The notes under the pieces were generated by a model. The model saw nothing but the letters and a program-made list of their open reading frames with translations, searched no databases and was not told where the DNA came from. Shown here one piece after another: positions 7,146 through 43,841 of a stretch of DNA of 43,841 nt (within the stretch, counting starts at the first letter, position 1; each line of letters opens with the position of its first letter). The translations under genes were made by a program, and so were the position numbers. Location of the stretch: contig JAMOAB010000147.1 of assembly GCA_023621995.1 (NCBI GenBank), positions 1-43,841 of the forward strand, read 5' to 3'. Origin of the DNA: Bacillota bacterium (GTDB lineage Bacteria; Bacillota; Clostridia; Caldicoprobacterales; Xylanivirgaceae).

Positions 7146-7146
7146 G

Positions 7147-7262: not shown

Positions 7263-7287
7263 CTTTCCATATAATTGCATATAAAGG

Positions 7288-8516: not shown

Positions 8517-8597
8517 ATAACTATCACACTCTCTAAATTAGATTTTCTATATATATATAATATTGAAATACTTAAGGGGGATCAAGTACATTAAAAA

Positions 8598-8627: not shown

Positions 8628-8628
8628 A

Positions 8629-8898: not shown

Positions 8899-8918
8899 AA
8901 CATCAACCTCCTAAATAG

Positions 8919-8974: not shown

Positions 8975-8998
8975 CTTTTTAGGGTCTATAGTGGATTT

Positions 8999-9436: not shown

Positions 9437-9460
9437 ACTCACACCCCCTGCAATTGAAAA

Positions 9461-9817
9461 TTAGTCATTACAATGCCCTTCATGGGCATGTTCTCTACAT
9501 ACACTCCCTGTAGATTCAAGCTCTCCCCGTATATATTGCTCTACCACATCATCGCACAGTCCCTGTGCTCCTACTACAACATCTATCCCATTTTCACTGA
9601 ACAGTTCTTGTGCCATTGCGCCCATACCGCCTGCCACTATTACATCGGTACCTAGATCCTTTAAAAATACTGGAAGAAATCCTGGTTTATGCCCTGGATT
9701 TTCTACAAAATTCTTAGTTTTTACCTGCTTGCCGTCTACCTCATATACTGTAAAACCCTCACAATGTCCAAAATGTCCACTCACATATTTACCTTCACTT
9801 GCAATTGTTATCTTCAT
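9461..9817 (-). CDS. NifX/NifB-C family protein (dinitrogenase Fe-Mo cofactor biosynthesis domain), copy 2
   Basis: 118 residues from the ATG at 9817 (MKITIASEG), chosen because AGGAGG lies 10 nt upstream; the frame runs open to 9862 but that would overlap the preceding gene. The fold's signatures are present: SGHFGHCEGFTVYEVDG near the start, VIVAGGMGAMAQELF in the middle, and VVVGAQG followed by a His/Cys-rich tail (CREHAHEGHC). Such proteins bind Fe-S or Fe-Mo clusters in nitrogenase assembly, but in non-diazotrophic anaerobes their role is unknown. No nif structural genes are in the window. Same operon as the two MinD-like ATPases. Confidence 0.88.
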   Translation of the reverse strand: MKITIASEGKYVSGHFGHCEGFTVYEVDGKQVKTKNFVENPGHKPGFLPVFLKDLGTDVIVAGGMGAMAQELFSENGIDVVVGAQGLCDDVVEQYIRGELESTGSVCREHAHEGHCND

Positions 9818-9831
9818 CTTTTCTATTCCTC

Positions 9832-10680
9832 CTAAAAAATCAAACTTTTTATTGTTAACCACATATCTTTAATAGCCTTAGCCGCACTACTTCCCTCATA
9901 ATAGACTATTGGCTTTAATTCATGTATAGATTCCATTACCAGGTCATCAAAAGGGATCTTACCTACTAGTTGTAGCCCCTCTTCTTCTACAAAAGCCTCT
10001 ATCTCCTTGCCCATATCTTCATTGATATCATACTTATTTATACATACCATTGGATCTATGTCAAAATGGCGTGATAACTTCACCACCCTCTCAAGATCTG
10101 AAAGACCAGATTGAGTTGGCTCTGTTACAACAAGTACAGCATCACTTCCAGTTATAGAGGCGATAACCGGACATCCTATACCTGGAGATCCGTCTATTAC
10201 TGTCAATGTCTCGTCATCTGAATACTTACGTGCAATCCTGCGAAGTAATGTTATGAGCATTCCTGAACCATCACTGCCTATCTCCATCTCTGCCCTCGAA
10301 AGAATGCCATCATCTAATTGGGTTGTATACACATCCCCATCCTTTTCTGGCTTTAACTCTATGGCGTCTTGGGGACATATAAGAGTACAGGCCCCACATC
10401 CTTCACAGGCAAGGGGCATTACTCTAAAGTCCTCTATGGCGTCAAATCTGCAGACATGTTCACAGCTACCACATCTAGTGCATATATTTCCATCAATATA
10501 TGCTACTTTACCGCCGTAAAAATCCTCCCTTGCTATATCCTTCCCCTCATAGTAGAGATGGAGGTTGGCTGCATCCACATCACAGTCTACCCTAGTTACT
10601 TCCTTTGCAAGTTCTGAGAGGGCTGCTGCTATTGTTGTCTTTCCTGTTCCGCCTTTTCCACTGAGTACAACTAAGTCCAC
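9832..10680 (-). CDS. MinD-family ATPase with inserted two-cluster ferredoxin domain (copy 2)
   Basis: 282 residues. The deviant Walker A SGKGGTGKTT begins at residue 7. A ferredoxin insert follows at about 60-115 with two 4Fe-4S motifs, CTRCGSCEHVC and CEGCGACTLICP. The rest is MinD/Mrp-like, with VIDGSPGIGCPVIASITG and VTEPTQSGLSDLERV. This domain order matches COG1149. Such proteins are thought to load or move Fe-S clusters, or to couple ATP hydrolysis to electron transfer, but none is well characterised. The GTG start lies inside the end of the preceding gene (10-nt overlap) with GGGAGGTG upstream, so the two copies are translationally coupled and may form a heterodimer. Confidence 0.9.
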   Translation of the reverse strand: MDLVVLSGKGGTGKTTIAAALSELAKEVTRVDCDVDAANLHLYYEGKDIAREDFYGGKVAYIDGNICTRCGSCEHVCRFDAIEDFRVMPLACEGCGACTLICPQDAIELKPEKDGDVYTTQLDDGILSRAEMEIGSDGSGMLITLLRRIARKYSDDETLTVIDGSPGIGCPVIASITGSDAVLVVTEPTQSGLSDLERVVKLSRHFDIDPMVCINKYDINEDMGKEIEAFVEEEGLQLVGKIPFDDLVMESIHELKPIVYYEGSSAAKAIKDMWLTIKSLIF

Positions 10681-11501
10681 TCTAGCACCTCCCCTAGCCC
10701 CATTGCTAAATGGTCAAAAAGGGCTCTATTATCTTGAGTAGCATATAGCATCTCACCTTTTGAATAGGCAAGGGCAATTGAATCACTATATGGAACTGTT
10801 CCTATTATTTCAATTTGTCTATCCTTGCAATAGGATTTAACTATATTTTCTCTGCCATCATCTTTGTTTATTATTACGCCAAAAGGAATAGAAAACATAT
10901 CCACAAGCTCTACTGCCCTCTCTAGATCGTGGAGTCCAAATTTAGTAGGCTCTGTTACCAGTATTGCACCGTCTGCATATCTAAGTGATGTTACCACATT
11001 ACATGAAGTTCCAGGTGGACAGTCTATGATGTTTAGCCCGTCATCTAAATTCCTAAGGATACTCCTTATGACAGGTACAGCCATTGGTTCACCTATATTT
11101 AATATTCCCCTACTACAGTTTATACCATGGCCCATGCCTTTTTCTATTCTGCCTACTTCTCTCTTTCCATAGCCTAATGCTCCATACTTACATACTATTT
11201 CACAGGCGCCACAACCGTGGCATAGCTTTTCAAAGAGCAATATACCATTACCTGCACTTGCAAGGGCATTAAATTGACACACATCTACGCATACACCACA
11301 ATCTGTACACTTATCCTCATCTATTACAGGATATTCTACCATCACCTCTTCTGTATTGACTATATTGGGCTTTAGAAATAGAAAACCGTTTGGCTCTTCC
11401 ACATCACAGTCAATATATTTTGCCCCTAGGGCCAAGGCAAGGTTTGTAGAGATTGTAGTCTTCCCCGTTCCTCCTTTTCCACTTAACACTGCTATATTCA
11501 A
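10671..11501 (-). CDS. MinD-family ATPase with inserted two-cluster ferredoxin domain (copy 1)
   Basis: About 276 residues. The start is placed at the TTG at 11501 (MNIAVLSGKGGTGKTT), because GAGGAGG lies 8 nt upstream and the preceding gene ends at 11521; the frame is open to 11534 but that would overlap. The deviant Walker A is followed by the ferredoxin insert with CTDCGVCVDVC and CHGCGACEIVC, then GINCSRGILNIGEP, IIDCPPGTSCNVVTSL and VTEPTKFGLHDLERA. It is a paralogue of the gene downstream, which it overlaps by 10 nt. The two ATPases probably act as a pair with the NifX-like proteins on either side. Confidence 0.9.
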   Translation of the reverse strand: MNIAVLSGKGGTGKTTISTNLALALGAKYIDCDVEEPNGFLFLKPNIVNTEEVMVEYPVIDEDKCTDCGVCVDVCQFNALASAGNGILLFEKLCHGCGACEIVCKYGALGYGKREVGRIEKGMGHGINCSRGILNIGEPMAVPVIRSILRNLDDGLNIIDCPPGTSCNVVTSLRYADGAILVTEPTKFGLHDLERAVELVDMFSIPFGVIINKDDGRENIVKSYCKDRQIEIIGTVPYSDSIALAYSKGEMLYATQDNRALFDHLAMGLGEVLEWT

Positions 11502-11520
11502 ATTGTCTTCCTCCTCTAAG

Positions 11521-11883
11521 TCAATGTCCTCCATGATGGGCTGGACCTGACTCTTCTATCTCTAAAAGCTCTCCACTTCCATACTTCTCAAGAACATCTC
11601 TTATTACCATCTCATGGCATTTATATGCCTTAATGCCCGATTTTTCTATAAGCTCAAATGCATTGGGACCAAGATTGCCTGTAATTATAACTTCTACCCC
11701 TTCATCTATGAGCTGCTGAGATGCTGCAATTCCAGCACCTCCTTCAGAGGTAAGCCCTTTGTTTTCTACAGTCTCCACTTCTCCCGTCTCAGTGTCCTGT
11801 ATCACAAAATACTGACACCGTCCAAATCTCTTATCAAGCATGCTGTCTACTGTCTGTCCCGTTGCAGAAATTGCAATTTTCAT
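11521..11883 (-). CDS. NifX/NifB-C family protein, copy 1 (first gene of operon)
   Basis: 120 residues from the ATG at 11883 (MKIAISATGQTVDS) with GGAGGGAAGTAT upstream; the open frame continues to 11925 but would read into the operator. Family features are DKRFGRCQYFVIQD, VIITGNLGPNAFELIEKSGIKAY and a short His-rich end (GPAHHGGH) that could bind metal. It heads the five-gene operon NifX-MinD/Fd-MinD/Fd-NifX-DUF134. Its function outside nitrogenase assembly is unknown; a cluster-carrier role for the ATPases is plausible. Confidence 0.88.
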   Translation of the reverse strand: MKIAISATGQTVDSMLDKRFGRCQYFVIQDTETGEVETVENKGLTSEGGAGIAASQQLIDEGVEVIITGNLGPNAFELIEKSGIKAYKCHEMVIRDVLEKYGSGELLEIEESGPAHHGGH

Positions 11884-11915
11884 ATACTTCCCTCCTCTTT
11901 TTGTGTTCTTCCTTA

Positions 11916-11975
11916 TTATTGGCAAATGCCATTAATATAATACTTCTGTTTTTTGTTCTTGTCAAATGCCAATAA
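11916..11975 (-). promoter_or_regulatory. Promoter and dyad operator of the NifX/MinD operon
   Basis: Minus strand: TTGACA (11965-11960), 17 nt, TATTAT (11942-11937). A palindromic site TTATTGGCAAATGCCATTAA (11916-11935) lies just past the -10, and an inverted related site, minus strand TTATTGGCATTTGACA (11975-11960), covers the -35. All four half-sites at this locus and at 8919-8974 share the core TTATtGgCAtaTgcc, so one regulator probably controls both promoters. Confidence 0.68.
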
Positions 11976-11985
11976 CCAATTTGTA

Positions 11986-12021
11986 TAAAAATAGCCGCCT
12001 AACTCCATTATGAGTTAAGCG
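11986..12021 (-). terminator. Terminator after the MetV-NuoG fusion gene
   Basis: Minus-strand hairpin CGCTTAACTC (12021-12012) / GAGTTAGGCG (12005-11996) with one mismatch, 6-nt loop, followed by ATTTTTAT. Confidence 0.8.
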
Positions 12022-12042
12022 ACTCTACAGACTATTTTGATG

Positions 12043-13260
12043 TTATGACTGAAAGATCAGCTCTTCCTTCCAGTCCTCCCCTGTATAGTGGGCTATCTTT
12101 TCAGTTATTGCTCCAGTGGGACATGCAAATACACACGCAAGGCAAGTAACGCAGGGACTCTTAGCAAAATTCTTGTTTGCGCCGGCAACTACAACAGTCC
12201 TAAAGCCCCTATTTACAAAGCCTAAATTATCTTGACATGCTATCTCCCTGCATGCCCTTACACACCTTCCACACAGTATACATTTATTGGGATCATAGAG
12301 TAGCACAGGGCTAGTAGTATCCACAGGCATCTTTTCTTTGTCTTGCTCAAATCGAGATTCTTTGATTCCAAATTTTCGTACCAAGCTCTGAAGCTCACAT
12401 GCACCTGCAATGACTGGATTGCCCTTATGACAAGTCAAACAATTGTGCTCATGGGACGCCAAGAGCAATTCAAGTAATATTCTCCTGTTGTGATTTAACT
12501 CATCATCCTCTGTTATAATCTCCATACCATCCCTTACATGTACCGCACATGCAGGAGTAAACTCCCTCTCTCCCTTTACCTTGACTAGACATAACCTACA
12601 GTTGGCATCTGGCGTAAGATCAGGTGTACTACATAGATGGGGTATCTCAATACCACATTCCATGCAAGCCTCCATTATAGTCAAACCCTCTTTTACCCTA
12701 TACTCTGCCCCATTTATACTTACGCTCACCAAATTCTCGCCGCTGTCATCTCTAGCTTCATCTCTACCAAAGAAGGTTGGATAAAGACTTAGTTTTTCTG
12801 CAATCTCTGGATAGGAATAGCCCTCATCACTCTGTTCAAGTCCAGTAGACTCAAATGGTGCAGTAAGTACTGGACCCCTGTCCATTGTAAAGTTACCAAC
12901 GCCTAATGTCTTAACCACCTTGATTACCTTTTTGTCTTTGAAAACTGCCTCTGCAACTTCATATCCATCTTCACAGGATAGACATATTATAGCTGTGGCC
13001 TCTTCAAATAGCTCCCTCTTATTTGGATGATCTCTGTGTTGTTCGGTCAGAGAATACATACACGCAATGCCCACCAGTTCCTTGCCTATTACCTCATATC
13101 CATCTGCTGTGAGCATCTCTTCCAATAGTACCATATTGTCATAGCCACCTATGCCACAGAATTTGATACATGTATTACAGCTCCAAAGTACAATCTTATC
13201 GTCTTTACTGAGCTTATCTTTAAGCTCTGCATAACTTATATCTCTAAGCGATATAATCAT
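12043..13260 (-). CDS. Fusion of a MetV-like (MTHFR C-terminal) domain with a NuoG/HydA-type N-terminal Fe-S module
   Basis: 405 residues. Residues 1 to about 160 form a MetV-like domain (methylene-THF reductase C-terminal family): WSCNTCIKFCGIGG, VGIACMY and ICLSCEDG. From about 175 comes an electron-wire module. It holds a plant-type 2Fe-2S domain (CGIEIPHLC, CRLCLV, ACAV), a His-Cys 4Fe-4S motif (HEHNCLTCHKGN) and two 4Fe-4S motifs (CILCGRCVRACREIA and CVTCLACVFACPTGA). This is the arrangement at the N-terminus of HydA and NuoG, but no H-cluster or molybdopterin domain follows. It would pass electrons from NuoF to the partner site. It directly follows a stand-alone MetV-like gene (stop and start are adjacent) in the nuoE-nuoF operon. 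The reaction cannot be named from sequence. Confidence 0.88.
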   Translation of the reverse strand: MIISLRDISYAELKDKLSKDDKIVLWSCNTCIKFCGIGGYDNMVLLEEMLTADGYEVIGKELVGIACMYSLTEQHRDHPNKRELFEEATAIICLSCEDGYEVAEAVFKDKKVIKVVKTLGVGNFTMDRGPVLTAPFESTGLEQSDEGYSYPEIAEKLSLYPTFFGRDEARDDSGENLVSVSINGAEYRVKEGLTIMEACMECGIEIPHLCSTPDLTPDANCRLCLVKVKGEREFTPACAVHVRDGMEIITEDDELNHNRRILLELLLASHEHNCLTCHKGNPVIAGACELQSLVRKFGIKESRFEQDKEKMPVDTTSPVLLYDPNKCILCGRCVRACREIACQDNLGFVNRGFRTVVVAGANKNFAKSPCVTCLACVFACPTGAITEKIAHYTGEDWKEELIFQS

Positions 13261-13761
13261 CTATTCCACCCCCAGTTCTATAGGTATCTGCTCTTTCTCC
13301 ATCTTGTTCTTTCCGTCAGATCCTATGGGATATTCTTCACCTAGTTTATAACTATGCCGCTCGTAAGGCATTGCAATCTTTACAATACCTTTATTTGTAT
13401 CTGCCACTATAAGTCCTATATTATCCACTGTCTCAACCACTTTAATATGGGGATAATTTCGCCTAATATTGGATACCCCTGCTGTACATGCTAGTGAAAC
13501 TACTGTATTTACTTCAGGAGATAACTCTACTATGACTAGATAAGGCTCCATACACGCTATGGGTAGCATAATGCCATCTTTTACGTTGTATCCATCTTCC
13601 CTCAGCTTAAGTGCCAGCTCCCGCATCTTATCTGGTCCGCCGGCGCCGGAGACCCTTATACACGTATTACAGCCAATTATGGTAATCACATCGCTATTCC
13701 TATCTAGCTGGCTGGTTAATTCCTCATACTCTAATGAATTACTAAAAATCACAAGTCTCAC
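13261..13761 (-). CDS. Stand-alone MetV-like (MTHFR C-terminal family) protein
   Basis: 166 residues. It is a paralogue of the first 160 residues of the next gene: GCNTCIRVSGAGGPDKMREL, LPIACMEPYL and VSLACTAG keep the CNTC, AC and C-x2-G positions. MetV in acetogens is a small Cys-rich partner of methylene-tetrahydrofolate reductase and links it to electron carriers. No MetF gene is in this window, so the role here may be in building an electron-transfer complex rather than in folate chemistry. It sits 8 nt after nuoF and abuts the fusion gene. Confidence 0.8.
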   Translation of the reverse strand: MRLVIFSNSLEYEELTSQLDRNSDVITIIGCNTCIRVSGAGGPDKMRELALKLREDGYNVKDGIMLPIACMEPYLVIVELSPEVNTVVSLACTAGVSNIRRNYPHIKVVETVDNIGLIVADTNKGIVKIAMPYERHSYKLGEEYPIGSDGKNKMEKEQIPIELGVE

Positions 13762-13769
13762 CCCTCTAT

Positions 13770-15485
13770 CTATTCAACTATCTGTTCATATTCATCCCTA
13801 AAATATTTTAGCGTACTTAAAACTGGATTTGATGCAGTCTTTCCAAGTCCACAGAGAGCAGTTTCCTTTACCACATGTGCCAAATCTTCGAGTATATCTA
13901 TATCCTCTTTCGTTCCGTTACCACTGCATATCTTGTCCAATATATTCACCATCTGCCTTGTACCTTCCCTACATGGTAGGCACTTTCCACATGACTCGTC
14001 TGAGCAAAATTTCACAAAGAATCGTGCAATATCTACTGCTGATTTGTCTTCATCTATTGCTATCATTCCACCTGAACCCATTATAGTACCTAACTCTTTA
14101 AGAGGTTCGTAATCTAGAGGCGTATCTAAATACTCTAACGGAAGACAGCCGCCTGATGGACCACCGAGCTGTACAGCCTTAATGTTCTTGCCATTCTCTG
14201 GACACATTGCCATCTCCTCTATGACCGTTCTCACCGAAGTTCCTATTGGCACCTCAACACATCCTACATTTACTATATCTCCAGTTATGGAGAACACCTT
14301 AGTTCCCTTACTCTTTTCAGTACCTATACTGGCAAACCACTCACTGCCATTTAATATTATTGGTGCTATATTTGCCAAAGTCTCCACATTATCTATGATA
14401 GTAGGCTCCTTAAATAGTCCCTTTTCTGCTGGATAGGGAACCTTAAGCCTCGGATTACCCCTGCCACCTTCTATTGATCTTATAAGGGCGGTCTCCTCAC
14501 CACAGACAAATGCTCCTGCTCCTTCATATACCTCAATGTCAAAATCGAATCCTGAACCAAATATATCCTTTCCCAAAAGTCCGTAGCGCCTAGCTTGAGA
14601 TATTGCCCTATTTAACACTTCAACAGCCAATGGATATTCTGCCCTACAATATATATAACCCCTTGTAGCTCCAATTGCCTTACCTGCCACTATCATACCT
14701 TCAATTACCGAATGGGGATCGCTCTCTAACACACTTCTATCCATATATGCACCTGGATCGCCTTCATCTGCATTACATATTATATATTTGTCCTTTGAGT
14801 CTGCCTTTGAAGCAAACTTCCACTTAAGTCCAGTTGGGAATCCAGCTCCTCCCCTGCCCCTCAAACCAGACTCTGATACAGTTTTAATAATATCTCCTCG
14901 ATCCATCTCTCTAAGTGCCCTATATGCTGCCCTATAGCCGTCCCTAGCAATATAGTCATCTATCTTAAAGGGATCTATAACCCCCCTATTTCTCATGACA
15001 ATCTGTTTTTGACGACTGAAATAAGGTATCTCTTCTATACCATCTATAGAATCATCTATAACTTCTTGACCCTCAATCCTACCATTGTTTTTGAGCCTTT
15101 TCTCCATATCGCATTCTCTACCCCTTGCAAATGCGTATTTACTCACAACCGTTCCATCTTTTATATGGGTATCGAATATTTCAGCTGCCTTACCAGCATC
15201 TATATATTCATATATAATCGGCTCCTGGTTCACCACCTCAACTGTTACAAGTGGCTCCCTAGAACATATTCCCATGCATCCTGTAGTATCTAATTTCACA
15301 TCCCTTGCCTTAGATTCCCTTACAAGGCCTTTGAATGTGTCGAATACATCCTTTGCCCCAGATGCTATACCACAAGTACCCATGTGCACTGTTACTCTCA
15401 CTCTCTTATCATCTTCGCTTAGTTGGCTTTTCTTAAGCGTCTTAATTTTTATATCCTCTAGCATCGCTAAGTCTTTAACTATCAA
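13770..15485 (-). CDS. NuoF-like NADH-binding flavoprotein subunit
   Basis: About 571 residues. An N-terminal thioredoxin-like 2Fe-2S domain (MGTCGIASGA, GCMGICSREP) is followed by the NuoF core. This has GRGGAGFPTGLKWKF (NADH/FMN site), CNADEGDPGAYMDR, EVYEGAGAFVCGEETAL, and SCGKCLPCREGT with a later Cys in ETALCGLG for the 4Fe-4S cluster. Many clostridial HydB/HndC homologues end with an extra two-cluster ferredoxin domain; this one stops at FRDEYEQIVE and lacks it. It would oxidise or reduce NAD(H) at FMN. The frame opens with a GTG at 15494, but that codon is part of the GGGGTG site, so the TTG at 15485 (MIVKDLAML) is preferred. Confidence 0.92.
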   Translation of the reverse strand: MIVKDLAMLEDIKIKTLKKSQLSEDDKRVRVTVHMGTCGIASGAKDVFDTFKGLVRESKARDVKLDTTGCMGICSREPLVTVEVVNQEPIIYEYIDAGKAAEIFDTHIKDGTVVSKYAFARGRECDMEKRLKNNGRIEGQEVIDDSIDGIEEIPYFSRQKQIVMRNRGVIDPFKIDDYIARDGYRAAYRALREMDRGDIIKTVSESGLRGRGGAGFPTGLKWKFASKADSKDKYIICNADEGDPGAYMDRSVLESDPHSVIEGMIVAGKAIGATRGYIYCRAEYPLAVEVLNRAISQARRYGLLGKDIFGSGFDFDIEVYEGAGAFVCGEETALIRSIEGGRGNPRLKVPYPAEKGLFKEPTIIDNVETLANIAPIILNGSEWFASIGTEKSKGTKVFSITGDIVNVGCVEVPIGTSVRTVIEEMAMCPENGKNIKAVQLGGPSGGCLPLEYLDTPLDYEPLKELGTIMGSGGMIAIDEDKSAVDIARFFVKFCSDESCGKCLPCREGTRQMVNILDKICSGNGTKEDIDILEDLAHVVKETALCGLGKTASNPVLSTLKYFRDEYEQIVE

Positions 15486-15499
15486 ATATATCACCCCGC

Positions 15500-15991
15500 T
15501 TACTTATATTGTTCTAATATTTTATCAATATCTTGGATTTTAACCTTTCCATAGACTTTCCCGTCTACAACCATAACTGGTGCCAGCCCACAAGTTCCAA
15601 AGCATCTGGCCTGTTCATAGGTAAATCTTCCATCCTCTGTACTCTCCCCAGGCTTTATATGGAACTTCTTTTCTATAAACTCCCCTATCTCCTTCCCACC
15701 TTTTACATAGCAAGCAGTACCTGCACATACTTGAATTCTGTGCCTAGCCCTAGGCTCCATTGTGAAATAAGAATAAAATGACACCACACCATAGATGTCA
15801 TTTTCAGGAATACCAGTTCTTTCGGATATCATCTCTTGCACAGCCACGGGAATAAAACCAAGCAGCTGTTGAACCTCTTCTAGTATAGGAATCAACTTAG
15901 ACCTAGTAGTACAGCTATCGATTATTTTGTCTAGTTCCCTTATTTGTTCTTCACTGAAGTTATAACTATCTAGAGTTATAGAGAGTTCCAT
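15500..15991 (-). CDS. NuoE-like 2Fe-2S subunit
   Basis: 163 residues with the NuoE thioredoxin-like fold. The four cluster ligands are seen in CAGTACYVKGG and CFGTCGLAPVM. The N-terminal helical part contains LLGFIPVAVQEMISERTGIP and VYGVVSFYSYF, both typical. It partners NuoF in NADH-linked complexes. It is the first gene of the operon nuoE-nuoF-MetV-like-fusion; the gap to nuoF is only a few bases. Two Rex-type operators lie upstream, so expression should rise when NADH/NAD is high. Confidence 0.93.
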   Translation of the reverse strand: MELSITLDSYNFSEEQIRELDKIIDSCTTRSKLIPILEEVQQLLGFIPVAVQEMISERTGIPENDIYGVVSFYSYFTMEPRARHRIQVCAGTACYVKGGKEIGEFIEKKFHIKPGESTEDGRFTYEQARCFGTCGLAPVMVVDGKVYGKVKIQDIDKILEQYK

Positions 15992-16053
15992 TACATTTCC
16001 CCCTTCCCTATTTTGTCATTAATGTGTTTTGTGGTAAATACTGTCAGAATAGT

Positions 16054-16071
16054 TTGTTAATCTTTTAACAG
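16054..16071 (-). promoter_or_regulatory. Rex operator, proximal
   Basis: TTGTTA-ATCTTT-TAACAG matches the Rex consensus TTGTTA-N6-TAACAA with one mismatch in the last base. It is 63 nt upstream of nuoE. Confidence 0.75.
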
Positions 16072-16169
16072 CGTCTATTTACAGTAGACTCCTACCTACA
16101 GGGTCTTTCAACCGTTTTTCATGTATTTCAATATCCCTACTTGATTTTTGGTTATATACCCTTTGAATG

Positions 16170-16187
16170 TTGTTAAATTTTTAACAA
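16170..16187 (-). promoter_or_regulatory. Rex operator, distal
   Basis: TTGTTA-AATTTT-TAACAA is a perfect Rex box. With the proximal site it points to NADH-responsive control of the nuoE operon. Confidence 0.85.
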
Positions 16188-16495
16188 GTTTTTTCCGTGT
16201 AATATTATCCCAATAATTTAAAAATCCCCCTTTCATGGCTCTTACATTAAAGACAAACTACGCTTAAACAAAATATTCTGTTCTGTACTTTATCATCATT
16301 AGAATTGAAATAATACTTTGGAGAGTTTTTCATATATTATTTTCCCTTTACCATTTCCCCATAGACCTTTTCTGATAAAATATTGCTAATACTGGTGAAT
16401 ATAGTTATGTAAGTTGTATACCTACATCTATGGAGATGGCACTCAAATGGCTTGATTAAGATAACATCATCACTACAGAGCAACTTTGATTAGTC

Positions 16496-16534
16496 AAAAA
16501 AAATGAGCCCACAGTTTAAATAGGCTCATTTTTT
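16496..16534 (-). terminator. Terminator after the DsrE-like gene
   Basis: Stem AAAAAATGAGCC / GGCTCATTTTTT (16498-16534, 13-nt loop), with A/T runs on both sides, so it may work in both directions. Confidence 0.85.
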
Positions 16535-16549
16535 ATCAAGTCAATTGAC

Positions 16550-16888
16550 CTATAGGGTTATAATGTCATAACCTTCACTCATATAGCGCTCCATAGAAGG
16601 ATGTCCCTTAAGTTCGTCTAGAAGGGGTATTTCAGACTTTTCGTTATACTCCAGTACCCCCATGGCACTAGAACATGCACGGCATACACCATCTATAAGT
16701 CCTAGCTCCTTGACCTCCAAAAAGAGAGGATTTTCTTTCTCCTCCTGCTCTTTAATGAGCTTGGTTGCCTGTCCTTCTAATATTATCTTGGCATCATTCC
16801 CCTTCTCATGGAGCTCTTTAGCATACAAAAGGACATGGACAAAACACATACTGTCAGCTCGGAATACGAAAAATGCCGTCTTTTTCAT
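16550..16888 (-). CDS. DsrE/DsrF-like family protein
   Basis: 112 residues with the DsrE-type alpha/beta fold: MKKTAFFVFRADSMCFVHVLLYAKELHEKG at the start, VEG-like strand KIILEGQATKL, and CRACSSAMGVLEYN with the Cys pair that lies at the position of the sulfur-handling Cys in related proteins. Members bind or relay sulfur, or are simply small redox proteins; the exact role is unknown. It follows the 2-oxoacid:ferredoxin oxidoreductase beta gene by about 60 nt on the same strand and probably belongs to that transcript. Confidence 0.75.
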   Translation of the reverse strand: MKKTAFFVFRADSMCFVHVLLYAKELHEKGNDAKIILEGQATKLIKEQEEKENPLFLEVKELGLIDGVCRACSSAMGVLEYNEKSEIPLLDELKGHPSMERYMSEGYDIITL

Positions 16889-16949
16889 AGTGAATCATTC
16901 CCCTTTCCTGTGTCTTTAATATACGATACATATGATATATTTGTAAAAC

Positions 16950-17801
16950 TTACATAAATTCTTTAAGAAGTCTCTCCCCCTCTTTCGGATTGAGCTTCTT
17001 ATCTACAAGTGGATCACCGTCCCTTATAAAATCAAATTTATCTTCATATGTCTCCTTCTCCACTTTGTATATTACTCCTACGGGTATCTTATCGCCAAAT
17101 TCTGAAGCCCTCCTAAAGGCTTCATCTCTGTCTGTAAAGTCATAATCCTCAGGTAGGTGGTATACCCTATCCCTATACCAGGCAAATGTATTCACCTTGT
17201 TCCAGACAACGCAGGGCTGGAGTATATCTACCAAGGCATACCCCCTATATGTTATTGCCTGTTTCATAATTTCTACCAAATGGGGAATATCGCCGGAAAA
17301 CCCCCTTGCTACAAAACCCGCTCCAGCGGCCATTGCCAACGTCAAAGGGTTGAGTGCCTCGAGTTTCACACCATCAAACTGCAATGTGGTCTTCTGCCCC
17401 ATTGCCGTAGTGGGTGATGCCTGTCCCTTAGTCAGACCATATACCTGATTGTCGTGTACAAAATGGGCTATATCTATATTCCGCCTTATAGTGTGAATGA
17501 AATGATTGCCACCTTCACCGTAGGTATCGCCATCTCCTGATTCTACAATCACCTTTAGGTCTTTATTAGCAAGCTTTATGCCAATTGCTGGTGGCAATGC
17601 CCTACCATGGAGTCCATTAAAACCATTTACCTTTATATATTGGGGCATCTTTGCTGCCTGGCCTATTCCAGAAGATATTACCACCTCATGGGGAGGTAGG
17701 TTGAGTTCCTCCAATGCCTGTTTTAGGGCAGTCCTTATAGCATAATTCCCACAACCAGGGCACCATGTAGGTTCATATAATTCATATTCATAACTTGTCA
17801 T
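16950..17801 (-). CDS. 2-oxoacid:ferredoxin oxidoreductase, beta subunit
   Basis: 283 residues. This is the thiamine diphosphate-binding subunit. It has the N-terminal WCPGCGNYA cluster-ligand motif, SSGIGQAAKMPQY, GLHGRALPPAIGIKLAN, the ThDP/Mg motif GDGDTYGEGGNHFIHTIRRN, and NQVYGLTKGQASPT. It decarboxylates a 2-oxoacid with CoA and passes two electrons to ferredoxin. The KorB-type layout suggests 2-oxoglutarate or a branched or generic 2-oxoacid rather than pyruvate, but the substrate is inferred. The start overlaps the end of the alpha-gene by 4 nt (ATGA), so translation is coupled. Confidence 0.92.
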   Translation of the reverse strand: MTSYEYELYEPTWCPGCGNYAIRTALKQALEELNLPPHEVVISSGIGQAAKMPQYIKVNGFNGLHGRALPPAIGIKLANKDLKVIVESGDGDTYGEGGNHFIHTIRRNIDIAHFVHDNQVYGLTKGQASPTTAMGQKTTLQFDGVKLEALNPLTLAMAAGAGFVARGFSGDIPHLVEIMKQAITYRGYALVDILQPCVVWNKVNTFAWYRDRVYHLPEDYDFTDRDEAFRRASEFGDKIPVGVIYKVEKETYEDKFDFIRDGDPLVDKKLNPKEGERLLKEFM

Positions 17802-19468
17802 AGTATATCCTCCTTTAAGGCAGTATATAGTTCATCACTACTAAAGGGGCGGCCATCGAATTTTAAAATTTTGTGGCTACATTTAAAGAGTACATTCTCT
17901 CTAATTAGGCTATCTAGCTGTGCTGTAGCATTTTGTTCCACATCTATTATCTTTCTTGCGTGGTTTGCAAGTTCCCGAAGCCGTTTAGTTGGAAATGGCC
18001 ATATGTCCCCAAATATAAGGGCACCTATCGATACACCTTCAGCGTTTAGCCTCTCTACAGCCTCCCTCACAGCTCCATAGGTAGAACCCCAACACACTAT
18101 CAAGTTTTCGGGATTTTTCTTGCCTACAAACCATGGCTCTTCTACATCTTCCTTGAGTCCCTCAAGTTTTCTCATCCGCTTTTTAACCATCTTGGTTCTG
18201 GTTACTCCATCTTCTGTTATATGACCAAACTCATCGTGTTCATCACTAGTCACCAGCACTACCTGCCCTTCCACCTTGCCTGGTATGAGCCTAGGAGAGA
18301 TACCACTTTCTGTGTATTTAAATCGCCTATATTCACCCTCTATATCCGCTTCATCTTCTATAATGTGTCTCTCTATTTCTATCTTGCTAAAGTCAAAGGG
18401 CTCAACCGTCATAGTGCTATCTGCTAGATGTTGATCGCTCACTAAGATTACCGGTATTTGATATTTATCTGCTAAATTAAATGCTCTGGCTGTCTGATAA
18501 AAAGCATCTTCAGGATTTCTCAGAGCTATAACCATGCGGGGAAACTCACCATGTCCTGCATGGATTAGAAATCTAAGATCAGACTGCTCTGTTCTAGTGG
18601 GAAAGCCAGTAGCCGGTGCTGGCCTCTGTACATCTATTAAGACTACTGGAGTCTCTATCATACCAGCAAGACTAAGTGCCTCTACCATTAGAGCAAAACC
18701 ACCACCTGATGAACCTGTCATAGCCCTAACCCCTGCATATGATGCACCTAAGGCCATATTAAGGGCTGCAACCTCATCCTCGACCTGCTCCACTACTATT
18801 CCCATATCCTTAGACTTAGAAGCCATATAGGTAAGTATCCCTGTAGATGGCGTCATTGGATATCCACAATAAAACCTACATCCTGCCCCTATAGCTCCAA
18901 GCGCCACTGCTTGATTGCCATTTACTATTATATTTTTGTCTTTAAGTGGTTTTAGACTATATGTGGCATCTACCATGTCATAGCCTGACAATAGGGCCCT
19001 TTGATTGAGCTTAGCTATCTTTTCATTAAATGTCTCACCAATTACCTCTTCAGCTACATCTGTAGGAAGCCCGAATATCTTGAGTATGACACCTAGACCC
19101 ACTGTAGTATGTACCTTAGGATTTTCAAGTTCCTTGGATGTCTCTACAAATGGCAAGTGAAGAACATCTCTTCCCGTTGCCACATCCTCATCACATATTA
19201 TAATGCCTTCAGCCTTTAATTTAGGACCATGAATATCTACCGTTTCATCGTTAAGTGCAAGTATGATATCTATATTGGAAGTGTGTGCATACATGGGCTT
19301 GTCTGAAAATCTGATTTGAACAAAATTGTGTCCTCCCCTTATCCTAGACATATAGTCGCTATAGGAGAACACGTAGAACCCGTGGCGCTTTAAAGTCTTT
19401 TCAAGAAGCCGACCTAATGTATCCATCCCTTGACCAGCCTCTCCACCTATCAGTATGCTATAATCCAT
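17798..19468 (-). CDS. 2-oxoacid:ferredoxin oxidoreductase, fused gamma-alpha subunit
   Basis: 556 residues. Residues 1 to about 180 are the gamma domain (GGEAGQGMDTLGRLLEK, SDYMSRIRGGHNFVQIR). The alpha part follows, with NGNQAVALGAIGAGCRFYCGYPMTPSTG, EQVEDEVAALNMALGASYAG, TGSSGGGFALMVEALSLAGM and TRTEQSDLRFLIHAGHGEFP. The C-terminal domain includes VCWGSTYGAVREAVERL. The fused gamma-alpha form is the common KorA type in anaerobes. No separate ferredoxin (delta) subunit is next to it, so a free ferredoxin is the likely acceptor. The NuoEF-like operon further downstream could re-oxidise this ferredoxin, though that link is inference. Confidence 0.92.
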   Translation of the reverse strand: MDYSILIGGEAGQGMDTLGRLLEKTLKRHGFYVFSYSDYMSRIRGGHNFVQIRFSDKPMYAHTSNIDIILALNDETVDIHGPKLKAEGIIICDEDVATGRDVLHLPFVETSKELENPKVHTTVGLGVILKIFGLPTDVAEEVIGETFNEKIAKLNQRALLSGYDMVDATYSLKPLKDKNIIVNGNQAVALGAIGAGCRFYCGYPMTPSTGILTYMASKSKDMGIVVEQVEDEVAALNMALGASYAGVRAMTGSSGGGFALMVEALSLAGMIETPVVLIDVQRPAPATGFPTRTEQSDLRFLIHAGHGEFPRMVIALRNPEDAFYQTARAFNLADKYQIPVILVSDQHLADSTMTVEPFDFSKIEIERHIIEDEADIEGEYRRFKYTESGISPRLIPGKVEGQVVLVTSDEHDEFGHITEDGVTRTKMVKKRMRKLEGLKEDVEEPWFVGKKNPENLIVCWGSTYGAVREAVERLNAEGVSIGALIFGDIWPFPTKRLRELANHARKIIDVEQNATAQLDSLIRENVLFKCSHKILKFDGRPFSSDELYTALKEDIL

Positions 19469-35805: not shown

Positions 35806-35835
35806 ACTTGAATTCTACTATAGATGCAATTATAC
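35806..35835 (-). repeat. Degenerate terminal CRISPR repeat (trailer end)
   Basis: Differs from all other repeats at positions 2 and 5 on the plus strand (ACTTG instead of ATTTC), that is, inside the crRNA handle. Decay of the repeat farthest from the leader is normal. Confidence 0.9.
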
Positions 35836-37433
35836 TAGTAACTACATTACTGCTATTACTGCTGTCAGCCCTATTTCAATTCTACTATAGATGCAATTAT
35901 ACCAATCAACAACATTATTATATCCAATATCATAACACATATTTCAATTCTACTATAGATGCAATTATACACGGTGGCGAATGGGATGAAGTGACCAAAG
36001 AATACACATTTCAATTCTACTATAGATGCAATTATACAGTCCTTATGATGAGCTGGTGATAGAGGCGTTAGAAAATTTCAATTCTACTATAGATGCAATT
36101 ATACCCATTCTTCGTGATGATTTTCTTCTATCTGTTCTCTATTTCAATTCTACTATAGATGCAATTATACGCTCACACACTTGTCGTCCTTCAGGTACAT
36201 ATTCACATTTCAATTCTACTATAGATGCAATTATACCATAATTGGTATACTCTAGATAGGTAATACTCTCGTATTTCAATTCTACTATAGATGCAATTAT
36301 ACAAGTAAAAGCTAAAGTAAATGAAGTATTCCCTAATAATTTCAATTCTACTATAGATGCAATTATACCTTCCATCTAACCCCTCCCTACCTCACTGGCT
36401 CTTCTATTTCAATTCTACTATAGATGCAATTATACTTGATAAATAGTTGAACTATATTTCCTATAATACATTTCAATTCTACTATAGATGCAATTATACC
36501 AAGACAGAAACCAAACCACAATCAAAAAAGACATATTTCAATTCTACTATAGATGCAATTATACGTTCTACTGCCTCTTGTAGCTGGTCATCTAGTGTTA
36601 AATTTCAATTCTACTATAGATGCAATTATACTTCGATATTCTCCTCCGCTAAAATGGGGGTCCCTGCATTTCAATTCTACTATAGATGCAATTATACCCG
36701 TCTGTATCTATCAAGGTTGGCTGCCGCCATAGCATTTCAATTCTACTATAGATGCAATTATACCAAACAACAATGAAAGATTTTATGGATCCTTCAAAGG
36801 AATTTCAATTCTACTATAGATGCAATTATACGATATCTTGAAGGTCTAGAGCTAGATGGGATACTAGATTTCAATTCTACTATAGATGCAATTATACGAG
36901 GAAGTGTTATAGAGGAGGGTAGCTATGGACAAAGATTTCAATTCTACTATAGATGCAATTATACTTAAAGAAGTAAGGACCAAGGATGCTTTATTAAGGC
37001 TATTTCAATTCTACTATAGATGCAATTATACTTTATCACCTTTTTTATACAACATTCCTAAGTTATCAATTTCAATTCTACTATAGATGCAATTATACTA
37101 GTCTGTATTTCTATATTACAAACCAAAGTCAGTCTAATTTCAATTCTACTATAGATGCAATTATACTATCGGTTATATCTGCTTGTGTAATTGTTGTTGC
37201 TCCATTTCAATTCTACTATAGATGCAATTATACTATTCTAATGTCTATTGTTATTCCCCACTTTTTACTAGATTTCAATTCTACTATAGATGCAATTATA
37301 CTTAGTCTGTCCCTATACCTTTGTCTTTCCTCTCTTTTATTTCAATTCTACTATAGATGCAATTATACCTTTCTAATAAAGCTAAGGCCCAAGCTAAGGC
37401 TGCATTTCAATTCTACTATAGATGCAATTATAC

Positions 37434-37469
37434 CTCACCTACACCTATTACTTGTGGGCCATCAAATAT
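37434..37469 (-). repeat. Spacer of duplicated pair A (older copy, 36 nt)
   Basis: Plus strand starts CTCACCTACACC and ends CATCAAATAT. Same protospacer as 37764-37800; the high-coordinate ends match exactly, but this copy is 1 nt shorter at the low-coordinate end. Confidence 0.9.
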
Positions 37470-37763
37470 ATTTCAATTCTACTATAGATGCAATTATACT
37501 CTCTAACTTTTAAATCTGATGTGATACTTCTAACCATTTCAATTCTACTATAGATGCAATTATACGCAAATTTTTCAGGCTTTCCATCCGCAACTTCAAC
37601 TATTTCAATTCTACTATAGATGCAATTATACATGGGGTAGAGTAAAAATCAATCCAAATGACACTGAATTTCAATTCTACTATAGATGCAATTATACAAG
37701 GTCAATTCTCATACTATCCTCAACCTTCTCGTAATTTCAATTCTACTATAGATGCAATTATAC

Positions 37764-37800
37764 CCTCACCTACACCTATTACTTGTGGGCCATCAAATAT
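37764..37800 (-). repeat. Spacer of duplicated pair A (newer copy, 37 nt)
   Basis: Same as 37434-37469 with one extra C at the low-coordinate end. The minus strand can be read as IFDGPQVIGVGE, which may be phage protein, unverified. Confidence 0.9.
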
Positions 37801-38960
37801 ATTTCAATTCTACTATAGATGCAATTATACTCTGCCCCTTTCATACCTCTATTAGCTAGTATTCCTATTTCAATTCTACTATAGATGCAATTATACTCGG
37901 CGATATATTCAGCTCTCTCCCTGTCTTCTTTGGTATTTCAATTCTACTATAGATGCAATTATACCATATACTCCAAAACCTAATGACAATCCAATTACAA
38001 TATTTCAATTCTACTATAGATGCAATTATACAATAATTTACAAGCAATGTTAACAATAACAACAGACAATTTCAATTCTACTATAGATGCAATTATACGT
38101 TATATAGTAGTTTTAAGTTACTTTCCAACCTATTATTTCAATTCTACTATAGATGCAATTATACCCGTCTAACCTATAGACTTCTATATCGAAGTCATTA
38201 TTTCAATTCTACTATAGATGCAATTATACTTGGCCTTATACAGGCTCTAACAATATCACTTTTATAAATTTCAATTCTACTATAGATGCAATTATACCTT
38301 GCTGACACTTTTGTTGACAACCTACTTAAAAATATTTCAATTCTACTATAGATGCAATTATACTGTTTTTTCAACGCGATTTTTAATATACCTAATTCAA
38401 TTTCAATTCTACTATAGATGCAATTATACAAGGGGATCGAGAACCACCTTGTAAAACTGCCGGTAATTTCAATTCTACTATAGATGCAATTATACCCGAT
38501 TAAAGGTACGGTTAATCTAGCTAAAAAAGGATTTCAATTCTACTATAGATGCAATTATACCCCATTAAAATTTTTGTGGGTTGGCTTCCAGGTATGAATT
38601 TCAATTCTACTATAGATGCAATTATACTTTTCTAATTGGTAAGTATCTTAATTGTGGATCTGCATTTCAATTCTACTATAGATGCAATTATACCTGATGT
38701 GCTTACGTGTTCTCCACTCTCTATATCAATGATTTCAATTCTACTATAGATGCAATTATACGAAGAAGCTCAAGCCGACATGGAACACCCCAGCCCTATT
38801 TCAATTCTACTATAGATGCAATTATACTGGTTCTCCATCTGCTATTTGTAGATACAGTCCGATATTTCAATTCTACTATAGATGCAATTATACACTAATT
38901 TTAGTTTTGAAAATGGGGTGCCTATGACGGATTTCAATTCTACTATAGATGCAATTATAC

Positions 38961-38996
38961 TGAAATCCTTTTTTCATCTTAGACCAATGGTTTTCT
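38961..38996 (-). repeat. Spacer of duplicated pair B (older copy, 36 nt)
   Basis: Plus strand starts TGAAATCC and ends GGTTTTCT. Same protospacer as 41034-41071, sharing the high-coordinate end. Confidence 0.9.
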
Positions 38997-41033
38997 ATTT
39001 CAATTCTACTATAGATGCAATTATACCTAGTAGCTTCTATCCCAAACCATTCATAGATCCAATTTCAATTCTACTATAGATGCAATTATACCTGGAGATC
39101 AACGATTTTAACAGCTGTTCGGGTTAAATCATTTCAATTCTACTATAGATGCAATTATACTCGTTTACCCTGTTTCCGACTACTGCCCCTTTAAATATTT
39201 CAATTCTACTATAGATGCAATTATACAAGACTTACAGAGCGGCAACTCTATAAGTCCTAGACAATTTCAATTCTACTATAGATGCAATTATACGATCCAA
39301 GAGGATATAACACAGACTAAAAAGGATATATTTCAATTCTACTATAGATGCAATTATACCTGACAACAAGCCTCTTGATGGACAAGCTGACAGCTAGATT
39401 TCAATTCTACTATAGATGCAATTATACTTATTTGCCCGTTTAACTGTGTACCAGCCGACAAGCATATTTCAATTCTACTATAGATGCAATTATACACTTG
39501 ACTTCATCTTTCCTTGTGGCATTTGACTGCCTAGATTTCAATTCTACTATAGATGCAATTATACAACTACAACTGACATAGGGAGCGCTATACTTGGTAT
39601 ATTTCAATTCTACTATAGATGCAATTATACTCCGGTATCCTCGATAGTCGTTATCGTTAATACACCATTATTTCAATTCTACTATAGATGCAATTATACG
39701 AAACAAAAGGAGGATGAAGGATAATGCTGGTAAAGATTTCAATTCTACTATAGATGCAATTATACCCGACATCCTGACCCTTCCAATTGACATCATGTCT
39801 GCATTTCAATTCTACTATAGATGCAATTATACTTTCCTTTAAAATGTTGGTTATCTGGTTGTACACGCTTATTTCAATTCTACTATAGATGCAATTATAC
39901 CCTCTAAATATTCAGGAATATCATAGTATCCACTTTCAATTTCAATTCTACTATAGATGCAATTATACGTGGCATACCAAGTTTTACCAAACTCTTATAT
40001 ATATTATTTCAATTCTACTATAGATGCAATTATACTTTTTTCATATGATTAACTATCCTCCTGTGAATAATATTTCAATTCTACTATAGATGCAATTATA
40101 CTATACAGCTTAATATTCTGTAACCTACGCCACCAAGAATTTCAATTCTACTATAGATGCAATTATACTATGCGATATACCCGACCGTCCCTATAATCTC
40201 TAGAATTTCAATTCTACTATAGATGCAATTATACCAATAAGACCTGAAACAGTATCTAATTGGTTTTTAAATTTCAATTCTACTATAGATGCAATTATAC
40301 TCTCTCACAAGTGCCTTAGCTATTTTGTCTATATCATTTCAATTCTACTATAGATGCAATTATACACTATATAAAACAAAATGGCGATGTAGTACTAAAA
40401 GAATTATTTCAATTCTACTATAGATGCAATTATACCCTTTGTTTGACTTGAGCGTATCTCTTTAATAAAAAATTTCAATTCTACTATAGATGCAATTATA
40501 CTAGAGCGACTTGGGACAAGACCATAGATGGGCAACAAATTTCAATTCTACTATAGATGCAATTATACCTGCACTATTCATCATCACACCTGTTAATAGT
40601 GCTTTATTTCAATTCTACTATAGATGCAATTATACCTGAAACAGCTGGACAATTAGGGGTAGAAAGAGAGATTTCAATTCTACTATAGATGCAATTATAC
40701 GGGACCAATAATGGAGGTGTAACCATGACTAGAAAAATTTCAATTCTACTATAGATGCAATTATACTTTCACCGTCCCTGGACCATTCCATATGGGAATT
40801 ACTCTATTTCAATTCTACTATAGATGCAATTATACAGACTTTCTAAGGGCCTCATTCTCTGATTCGGACAAATTTCAATTCTACTATAGATGCAATTATA
40901 CGAGATTCAACGACGTTTCTTTCCCTCAACTGCTCAATTTCAATTCTACTATAGATGCAATTATACATGATGCTCTGGCCCCAGCTGCCATAGAATTGGC
41001 AAGATTTCAATTCTACTATAGATGCAATTATAC

Positions 41034-41071
41034 TATGAAATCCTTTTTTCATCTTAGACCAATGGTTTTCT
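41034..41071 (-). repeat. Spacer of duplicated pair B (newer copy, 38 nt)
   Basis: Same as 38961-38996 with two extra bases (TA) at the low-coordinate end. The minus strand can be read as ENHWSKMKKGF. Confidence 0.9.
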
Positions 41072-43708
41072 ATTTCAATTCTACTATAGATGCAATTATA
41101 CCTAGTCTTTTAAAAGGCGGCACTGTAGATACAAAAGAATTTCAATTCTACTATAGATGCAATTATACCCTGGTTTTCCGTCCATTCGAACGCCATCTTC
41201 TCTAATTTCAATTCTACTATAGATGCAATTATACACGGCAAGTCAATATATAGAGTACCTGATAGAGCTAATTTCAATTCTACTATAGATGCAATTATAC
41301 GCTATCACTCGATGACGAACAGACAAGAGAAATCATGAATTTCAATTCTACTATAGATGCAATTATACGTGAAAGACAAGGATATACGTAAATATCTTAA
41401 AACAGATTTCAATTCTACTATAGATGCAATTATACCTGTTCATCCCACACGCAATGTGTGGGACTTCCGCCTATTTCAATTCTACTATAGATGCAATTAT
41501 ACACCCATACACCTACTGGAGGATACACTGTATCCGTATTTCAATTCTACTATAGATGCAATTATACGGGCGGTAGCCCGCCATTTACTTGAAAAAGAAA
41601 GAGGAACATTTCAATTCTACTATAGATGCAATTATACGTAGCCGGGAAGGAGGAGACGATGATTGTAAAGGCAAAATTTCAATTCTACTATAGATGCAAT
41701 TATACGAGTTGAGGCACTTGATAGCCTTGAGACATGCTTATTTCAATTCTACTATAGATGCAATTATACCGTTACACGATTTCCAGTCGTGCTTATTAAA
41801 TTCTAATTTCAATTCTACTATAGATGCAATTATACCCTGCGTTCGGGCTTTCGCCCATAGCGGTCAGAGAGCATTTCAATTCTACTATAGATGCAATTAT
41901 ACAGACATTATATCCTTCCCTATTTGCAGCATTTCTCCTATTTCAATTCTACTATAGATGCAATTATACCTTTTTGCTTCTGCTTCCATGTTGGCCATGC
42001 AGTTCTTAATTTCAATTCTACTATAGATGCAATTATACACTCACCTCCTTTGTTTACCTCCTAACAAACTTAAATTATTTCAATTCTACTATAGATGCAA
42101 TTATACTTGAGCTGCTAGATGAATATAAGACATGGTGGAATGATTTCAATTCTACTATAGATGCAATTATACGATCTGTGCTACATATCTTCTGCCAAGG
42201 CCGATAACAATTTCAATTCTACTATAGATGCAATTATACTTGCCCTATTCGGTGTTGCAACATCTCTTTGTTGCGTATTTCAATTCTACTATAGATGCAA
42301 TTATACTCTTCAATTCGTCTTTTTAACTCCGAATATACAAAAGGATTTCAATTCTACTATAGATGCAATTATACTGTCCATGGGGTAGCTTTATCTCCTT
42401 TTTCTAGTTTATTTCAATTCTACTATAGATGCAATTATACCTCTCGGGCTATCACGAAGTGGTACACCCATCTCAAATTTCAATTCTACTATAGATGCAA
42501 TTATACTAGACCTTCCCATAGCTTTACTAAAAATTCTACTATATTTCAATTCTACTATAGATGCAATTATACCCCTTCCATGGCTTCTATTTGCTTATTC
42601 ATACTCTTATTTCAATTCTACTATAGATGCAATTATACCGATGGTACTGTATGCGACATGATAGAAGTCTATAAATTTCAATTCTACTATAGATGCAATT
42701 ATACTTTTCATAGCTTCCATAGTCAAAGGCAAGGCTTTTACATTTCAATTCTACTATAGATGCAATTATACTGGAAGACGATGAGATCAATACTTTATAT
42801 ACAGTGAATTTCAATTCTACTATAGATGCAATTATACGGGAAAATTTTATCTAACTGATTGGCAGAGTGATGAAGGATTTCAATTCTACTATAGATGCAA
42901 TTATACACTCAATCCTCAGGCAATAAAAAAGATAGAAGATGCATTTCAATTCTACTATAGATGCAATTATACGATAATAATGTTCAATTTCTAGTGTAGT
43001 TTCATAATTATTTCAATTCTACTATAGATGCAATTATACCATCTCGCTTCCCTTTAATATCGCCTGTCTTTTAAAATTTCAATTCTACTATAGATGCAAT
43101 TATACATTACTATTTGAACCTAGTCCTTCTCTATCTATTTTTATTTCAATTCTACTATAGATGCAATTATACCATAGCCCTCTTCGACTGCTCTTCCTTC
43201 AATTGCGTATTTCAATTCTACTATAGATGCAATTATACAGGTTCGTGTCTCTGCTTGTATTGTGCGTTCATAGCATTTCAATTCTACTATAGATGCAATT
43301 ATACAAAGCTTACTTCCTTTTCTTTGTCTGTGCCCTTGTAATTTCAATTCTACTATAGATGCAATTATACTGACATATTGTCAAAATGTTCTTTGGTAAT
43401 TAAAACTATATTTCAATTCTACTATAGATGCAATTATACAATATTTACACCAAACTTAGGATGTTCTACGCTGTATATTTCAATTCTACTATAGATGCAA
43501 TTATACCAATATGGCTAGGGGTAGGCTCTATATGGCTATCCCTATTTCAATTCTACTATAGATGCAATTATACCCCATTGGTAAACCAGTCAACCGAACA
43601 CCGTTTACCAATTTCAATTCTACTATAGATGCAATTATACAAGAAAGCTTAGACAATGTATTTGGTAAAGATATATATATTTCAATTCTACTATAGATGC
43701 AATTATAC

Positions 43709-43841
43709 ATAAACTTAAAAGATATTAAAGTGTGTGTCAAGTTTTCGTTGGCACCTTTTTCTTCCAGAAAGTCAATCGCTATAATAATCAAGAAAAACAT
43801 CTTAAATTTTACCATTTACCAAAGTTGTCAAGCCTAAAATG
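43709..43841 (-). promoter_or_regulatory. CRISPR leader (partial, runs off right edge)
   Basis: AT-rich, no repeat, next to the last intact repeat on the side expected for the leader of a minus-strand array. On the minus strand it has two TTGACA elements (about 43826 and 43739). The nearer one is followed 17 nt later by TAAGTT, a weak -10, so the promoter is not fixed. The left part of the leader is visible; more may lie past the window. Confidence 0.7.

What the first reader, a model, noticed from the sequence alone, without database searches (positions are those of the whole stretch)
37434..41071. Spacer pairs re-acquired from the same protospacers with one fixed end
Pair A (37434-37469 and 37764-37800) and pair B (38961-38996 and 41034-41071) share their high-coordinate ends exactly but differ by 1 and 2 nt at the other end. 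Copying by recombination inside the array would give equal lengths. Independent acquisition anchored at the PAM, with loose measurement at the far end, gives this pattern. The fixed end is next to the crRNA handle, where a type I PAM would be, which independently supports the minus-strand orientation. In both pairs the copy nearer the leader is the longer one.
Basis: partly seen in the sequence, partly recalled or inferred. Interest (0 to 1): 0.7.

Follow-up and report, generated by a model that had tools for sequence, protein, structure and literature searches.

The report
CRISPR spacers captured twice, PAM-anchored
A bacterial immune memory array contains phage snippets that were captured twice from exactly the same spot, cut at a fixed signal on one side and loosely on the other, which shows how this common CRISPR type measures its snippets but agrees with a mechanism already described.

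Summary
The window holds a 119-repeat, 118-spacer CRISPR array read on the minus strand (35806-43708). Pair A (36/37 nt) and pair B (36/38 nt) share the handle-side (high-coordinate) end and differ at the other. A third such pair (35/37 nt) lies in a second array with the same repeat, beside a type I-B cas operon with one Cas4. Independent re-acquisition from the same protospacer is the best explanation. (1) Protospacers carry a (T)GCW PAM on the handle side (10 of 18). (2) Pair B's extra "TA" continues the homologous phage terminase gene; pair A's extra "G" fits the tape-measure motif but also equals the repeat's first base, so pair A alone is ambiguous. (3) In 62 Cas1b-linked arrays (3246 spacers), 26 same-origin pairs keep the handle end and differ by 1-2 nt at the far end; none does the reverse; six of the 26 also differ internally. 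"The longer copy is nearer the leader" is chance (10 of 21 elsewhere). An imprecise ruler measured from the PAM was described in Sulfolobus in 2012. This is a clear natural type I-B example, not a new mechanism.

The parts
35806..43708 (-). CRISPR array A: 119 repeats, 118 spacers; repeat on the minus strand GTATAATTGCATCTATAGTAGAATTGAAAT
35806..35835 (-). degenerate terminal repeat (2 mismatches at its handle end), marks the leader-distal (old) end
43709..43841 (-). leader-side flank (133 bp, then the contig ends); no similarity to the flank of the second array
37434..37469 (-). spacer s94, pair A short copy (36 nt): ATATTTGATGGCCCACAAGTAATAGGTGTAGGTGAG
37764..37800 (-). spacer s89, pair A long copy (37 nt); extra G at 37764; encodes IFDGPQVIGVGE(A), a tail tape-measure motif
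38961..38996 (-). spacer s71, pair B short copy (36 nt): AGAAAACCATTGGTCTAAGATGAAAAAAGGATTTCA
41034..41071 (-). spacer s40, pair B long copy (38 nt); extra TA at 41034-41035 continues the terminase large-subunit gene of phage homologues
38762..38797 (-). spacer s74: matches the DGR variable region of phage contig C157 (28/36), PAM TGCT
42173..42209 (-). spacer s23: perfect protospacer on phage contig C157, PAM TGCT
36303..36338 (-). spacer s111: protospacer with 1 mismatch on an IMG/VR phage, PAM TGCA

Best explanation
Each pair is two independent acquisitions from the same phage protospacer by a Cas4-containing type I-B system. Shown here: the PAM ((T)GCW) lies next to the handle end, that end is invariant between copies, and the far end varies by 1-2 nt. 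Inferred: Cas4-Cas1-Cas2 cuts the prespacer exactly at the PAM, the other end is trimmed by an imprecise length measure, and the prespacer is integrated next to the leader. The same protospacer was used again in a later infection, or again in the same episode for the adjacent pair on C119.
For: Pairs verified and a third one found. Type I-B operon with Cas6b, Cas7b, Cas5b, Cas3b, one Cas4b, Cas1b and a Cas2-sized 87-aa ORF (length and position only) directly upstream of the second array with the identical repeat. PAM: 10 of 18 independent protospacers carry GCA/GCT at -3 to -1 on the handle side, binomial p about 3e-11, with T at -4 in 13 of 18. Pair B's extra TA equals the next two bases of the terminase gene in phage Spoks, and in clear terminase homologues position +37 is T or C and +38 is nearly always A (Tyr codon then Lys). 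Pair A's extra G equals the first base of the following Ala codon. Comparative test: 26 pairs 5'-fixed/3'-different against 0 the other way, sign test 3e-8, in 14 genomes; differences of 1 nt (19) or 2 nt (7); six of the 26 also have 1-2 internal differences, so they come from variant phages and not from copying. Isolated pairs are equal in length in 14 of 36 (39%), against 31% expected for independent draws, p=0.28. Precedent: Erdmann and Garrett 2012 (PMC3468723) report homogeneous PAM ends, heterogeneous far ends and an imprecise ruler.
Against: The exact protospacers of the three pairs were not found, so the context rests on homologues. Pair A alone can be explained by a G-run indel. Homologous context excludes an insertion in the long copy of pair B but not a 2-nt deletion from the short copy. 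4 of the 26 comparative pairs are adjacent, where tandem duplication plus an indel is not excluded. In this set far-end differences never exceed 2 nt, slightly less spread than independent draws predict (P about 0.02-0.045).
Confidence: 0.94

Rival explanations
1. One copy was made by recombination or replication slippage inside the array and later gained or lost 1-2 nt at the spacer/repeat junction.
For: Arrays do duplicate: in relatives 20 block pairs and 8 adjacent pairs are equal in length. Pair A's difference is one G next to the repeat's G. The C119 pair is adjacent.
Against: Pairs A and B are 5 and 31 units apart with no neighbouring spacer duplicated. All three indels would have to fall exactly at the PAM-far edge although 118 of 119 repeats and all shared spacer bodies are identical. 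Pair B's extra bases match phage sequence. 26:0 asymmetry, and only 5 of 26 extras equal the repeat start. Six length-different pairs carry internal substitutions.
Confidence: 0.04
2. The spacer was inserted 1-2 nt into the leader, so the extra bases are leader bases and not phage bases.
For: It would also give variation only at the repeat-start side of the spacer (reasoning, no tool result).
Against: Extra bases G, TA (array A) and AG (C119 array) do not match the leader ends TTTAT and TAAA that precede the first repeats. Pair B's TA matches phage terminase.
Confidence: 0.01
3. A refinement of the best explanation: the far end is not merely imprecise but partly set by the protospacer sequence or structure, so copies of one protospacer are closer in length than random spacers.
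For: No difference of 3 nt or more in 26 unequal pairs (2.85 expected, P=0.045); summed difference over 36 isolated pairs 26 against 37 expected, P=0.019.
Against: Weak statistics; equal pairs may include recombination copies; Erdmann and Garrett saw no sequence specificity at the far end in Sulfolobus.
Confidence: 0.2

Closest known systems
PAM-anchored imprecise ruler in Sulfolobus solfataricus acquisition (Erdmann and Garrett 2012, PMC3468723; review PMC4390879)
   Same: Near-identical overlapping spacers share a homogeneous PAM-side end and differ at the far end; spacer lengths vary; the PAM side is leader-proximal in the array.
   Different: That was experimental acquisition in a crenarchaeal system with a CCN PAM and 36-43 nt spacers, and overlapping spacers were said to be rare inside natural Sulfolobus loci. 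Here it is a natural bacterial type I-B array with a (T)GCW PAM, 34-41 nt spacers and copies kept within one array.
Cas4-Cas1-Cas2 prespacer processing in type I-C (PMC6519985)
   Same: Precise PAM-side cut, with the PAM-distal end not shown to be defined by Cas4; a single cas4 gene.
   Different: Different subtype; no biochemistry was done here.
Clostridioides difficile type I-B adaptation (PMC8406132)
   Same: Type I-B with Cas1-Cas2-Cas4 and a 5' PAM that selects spacers.
   Different: C. difficile acquires mainly from CCN PAMs; here the PAM is GCW, and the Cas8-position protein matches no NCBIfam or PADLOC model.

Membership tests
Type I-B CRISPR-Cas | Cas1b/Cas4/Cas3/Cas5b/Cas7b/Cas6b in one operon | tested here: met
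   (Cas1 HMARI 443 bits, Cas7b, Cas5b, Cas3b, Cas4b, Cas6b)
Type I-B CRISPR-Cas | Recognisable Cas8b large subunit | tested here: inconclusive
   554-aa ORF in the right place, but 0 hits in NCBIfam and PADLOC
Type I-B CRISPR-Cas | Cas2 next to Cas1 | tested here: inconclusive
   87-91 aa ORF between cas1 and the array, Cas2-like by size and position only; not scanned
Type I-B CRISPR-Cas | 8-nt handle with 5' PAM next to it on the target | tested here: met
   repeat ends ATTGAAAT; GCW on the handle side in 10 of 18 protospacers
PAM-anchored imprecise-ruler acquisition | Same-origin spacers share the PAM end and differ at the far end | tested here: met
   3 of 3 pairs here; 26 against 0 in 62 arrays
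PAM-anchored imprecise-ruler acquisition | Extra bases of the longer copy belong to the protospacer | tested here: met
   met for pair B from homologous terminases; pair A consistent but ambiguous; third pair not testable, no informative homologue
PAM-anchored imprecise-ruler acquisition | Biochemical precise PAM cut and loose distal trimming | not testable with these tools
   needs purified Cas4-Cas1-Cas2 or an acquisition assay
Array duplication by recombination | Equal-length copies, usually in blocks or tandem | tested here: not met
   lengths differ and no neighbours are duplicated for pairs A and B; true duplications in relatives are equal in length

The most novel reading that the evidence does not exclude
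In type I-B systems the PAM-far cut is set partly by the protospacer itself (sequence, structure or a second weak signal), so repeated captures of one protospacer fall within 1-2 nt of each other although spacers in general span 7 nt.
Probability: 0.2. Interest if true: 0.5.

Novelty: new member of a known kind. Interest (0 to 1): 0.33.

Why it matters
Natural arrays hold repeat captures of the same protospacer, so the precision of prespacer cutting can be read from genomes alone. The 26:0 asymmetry gives a protospacer-free way to find array orientation and the PAM side, and a way to separate re-acquisition (different lengths, internal substitutions) from array duplication (equal lengths, blocks). 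It also shows the same phages, or close variants, returning to one host lineage. The mechanism itself is known.

Tried and rejected
Peptide-degenerate patterns for pair B and the third pair in IMG/VR, and for pair B in the genome collection, found nothing. A shorter pattern for the third pair hit two contigs of one protein whose sequence diverges before the variable end, so it says nothing about the extra AG. Own-genome search found no copy of the three paired spacers outside the arrays. A scan for Cas1 relatives in named genomes gave one distant archaeal hit, so unnamed class-level genomes were used instead. Mis-set integration into the leader was tested and rejected (extra bases differ from leader ends). 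No correlation of spacer length with position in the array. One locus with an irregular repeat boundary (L102) was left out of the comparative count. A first version of the comparative script failed and was rerun.

Full report
What is there. The window's right end is a CRISPR array of 119 repeats and 118 spacers (35806-43708). On the minus strand the repeat reads GTATAATTGCATCTATAGTAGAATTGAAAT; 118 copies are identical and the low-coordinate terminal copy has two changes, which marks the old end. The leader side is therefore 43709 onward, where the contig ends 133 bp later. The same genome holds a second array with the identical repeat (35 repeats, 34 spacers, G000:C119:49225-51537) directly downstream of a type I-B operon: WYL regulator, Cas6b, an unassigned 554-aa protein in the Cas8 position, Cas7b, Cas5b, Cas3b, Cas4b, Cas1b and a Cas2-sized ORF. 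The ten window genes nearest the array that were scanned are not cas genes, so array A is most likely served in trans by that operon (inference from the identical repeat).

The observation. Spacers s94/s89 (pair A, 36/37 nt) and s71/s40 (pair B, 36/38 nt) are identical over the shorter copy and flush at the high-coordinate end, which on the minus strand is the 5' end next to the handle. A comparison of all 152 spacers of the two arrays found a third pair, b22/b23 on C119 (37/35 nt), with the same geometry, and nothing else above shuffled background. For pair A the extra G sits next to the G that begins the repeat (GAG|GTATAA against GAGG|GTATAA), so taken alone it could be a G-run indel. Pair B and the third pair cannot be read that way.

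PAM. The same assembly contains two phage fragments, C157 and C163, and a related IMG/VR phage record was found with a baseplate protein. Matching all spacers to these and to other phage and genome hits gave 18 independent protospacers with at most 8 mismatches. The three bases 5' of the protospacer are GCA or GCT in 10 of 18, with T at -4 in 13 of 18 (binomial p about 3e-11 against 1/32). These include the best matches: s23 (0 mismatches, TGCT), s111 (1, TGCA), s76 (4, TGCA), s84 (5, TGCT) and s104 (5, TGCA). s79 (2 mismatches) has TGGT. The PAM is on the handle side, the end that is fixed in all three pairs. Some of the matched sequences are homologues and not the phages sampled, which probably explains the exceptions.

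Context of the extra bases. Pair B matches the terminase large-subunit gene of Psychrobacillus phage Spoks over all 38 nt (32/38). The two bases that only the long copy has, TA, are the third base of a Tyr/His codon and the first base of the next Lys codon. In clear terminase homologues from IMG/VR the two positions are T or C, then nearly always A, and one homologue (L157) carries TGCT at the PAM position. So the long copy contains real phage sequence, not an array insertion. Pair A encodes IFDGPQVIGVGE, a tail tape-measure motif; the next residue is Ala (GCN), so the extra G fits. No informative homologue was found for the third pair.

Comparative test. Arrays beside Cas1b genes in other genomes of the class were fetched and parsed: 62 arrays, 3246 spacers, 46 loci, including three arrays of this genome. 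Orientation was set from the repeat's handle end. Same-origin pairs within a genome fell into: 26 with the handle end equal and the far end different (19 by 1 nt, 7 by 2 nt; 14 genomes), 0 with the far end equal and the handle end different, 42 equal at both ends, and 3 other overlaps. Of the 42 equal pairs, 20 are block duplications and 8 adjacent, which is what recombination gives. Among isolated pairs 14 of 36 are equal in length, against 31% expected if lengths are drawn independently (p=0.28), so isolated repeats as a class look like re-acquisitions. Six of the 26 length-different pairs also have 1-2 internal substitutions and must come from variant phages. The longer copy is on the leader side in 13 of 24 pairs (10 of 21 outside this genome), so that part of the finding is chance.

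How often. Three repeats among 11,476 spacer pairs correspond to an effective pool of about 3,800 protospacers (95% interval about 1,300-18,500). Phage DNA here has about 0.05 GCW sites per base over both strands, so that is roughly two phage genomes' worth of sites. Re-use is expected if a small set of related phages returns.

Known or new. Erdmann and Garrett (2012, PMC3468723) reported for Sulfolobus that overlapping spacers have homogeneous PAM-side ends and heterogeneous far ends, and inferred an imprecise ruler measured from the PAM; the 2015 review repeats it (PMC4390879). Cas4-Cas1-Cas2 of type I-C cuts the PAM side precisely (PMC6519985). C. difficile type I-B acquires mainly from CCN PAMs (PMC8406132), so the GCW PAM here differs, in a system whose Cas8-position protein is not recognised. 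The finding is a clean natural type I-B instance of a known mechanism. A weak extra signal, that two captures of one protospacer are slightly closer in length than random spacers (P about 0.02-0.045), is left as a lead.

Noticed in passing
window 38762-38797; L028 3711; L029 (G000:C163): Spacer s74 targets the variable region of a phage diversity-generating retroelement (28/36 match to C157, PAM TGCT). 6 of its 8 mismatches align with adenines of the template repeat on C163 (9 of 36 positions; hypergeometric p about 0.001 by hand), so the locus the spacer targets is one the phage can rewrite. Spacer s76 targets the avd gene of the same element.
   Followed up: partly
G000:C157 (L028) and G000:C163 (L029): Two phage fragments in the bin carry related tail/baseplate genes. 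C163 has the variable protein, Avd, template repeat and reverse transcriptase; C157 has the variable protein and only a fragment of the reverse transcriptase, with a 255-aa ORF of unknown function before it.
   Followed up: partly
window 41770-41805: The last 23-26 nt of spacer s29 match what appears to be a tRNA-Ser core in many genomes (including C28 and C36 of this one), suggesting capture from a phage tRNA or an attachment site. Not checked with a tRNA finder.
   Followed up: no
G000:C119, G000:C173, G000:C109: The genome has three Cas1b genes. C173 lies beside a 53-spacer array with a different repeat; none of its spacers is shared with the arrays studied here.
   Followed up: partly
L009:11427-13091: The 554-aa protein in the Cas8b position matches no NCBIfam or PADLOC model although the rest of the operon is ordinary type I-B; the PAM (T)GCW is also unlike the CCN of C. 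difficile.
   Followed up: no
window 43709-43841 and G000:C119:48925-49224: The flanks upstream of the two arrays' first repeats share no significant similarity although the repeats are identical (longest match 9 bp).
   Followed up: partly
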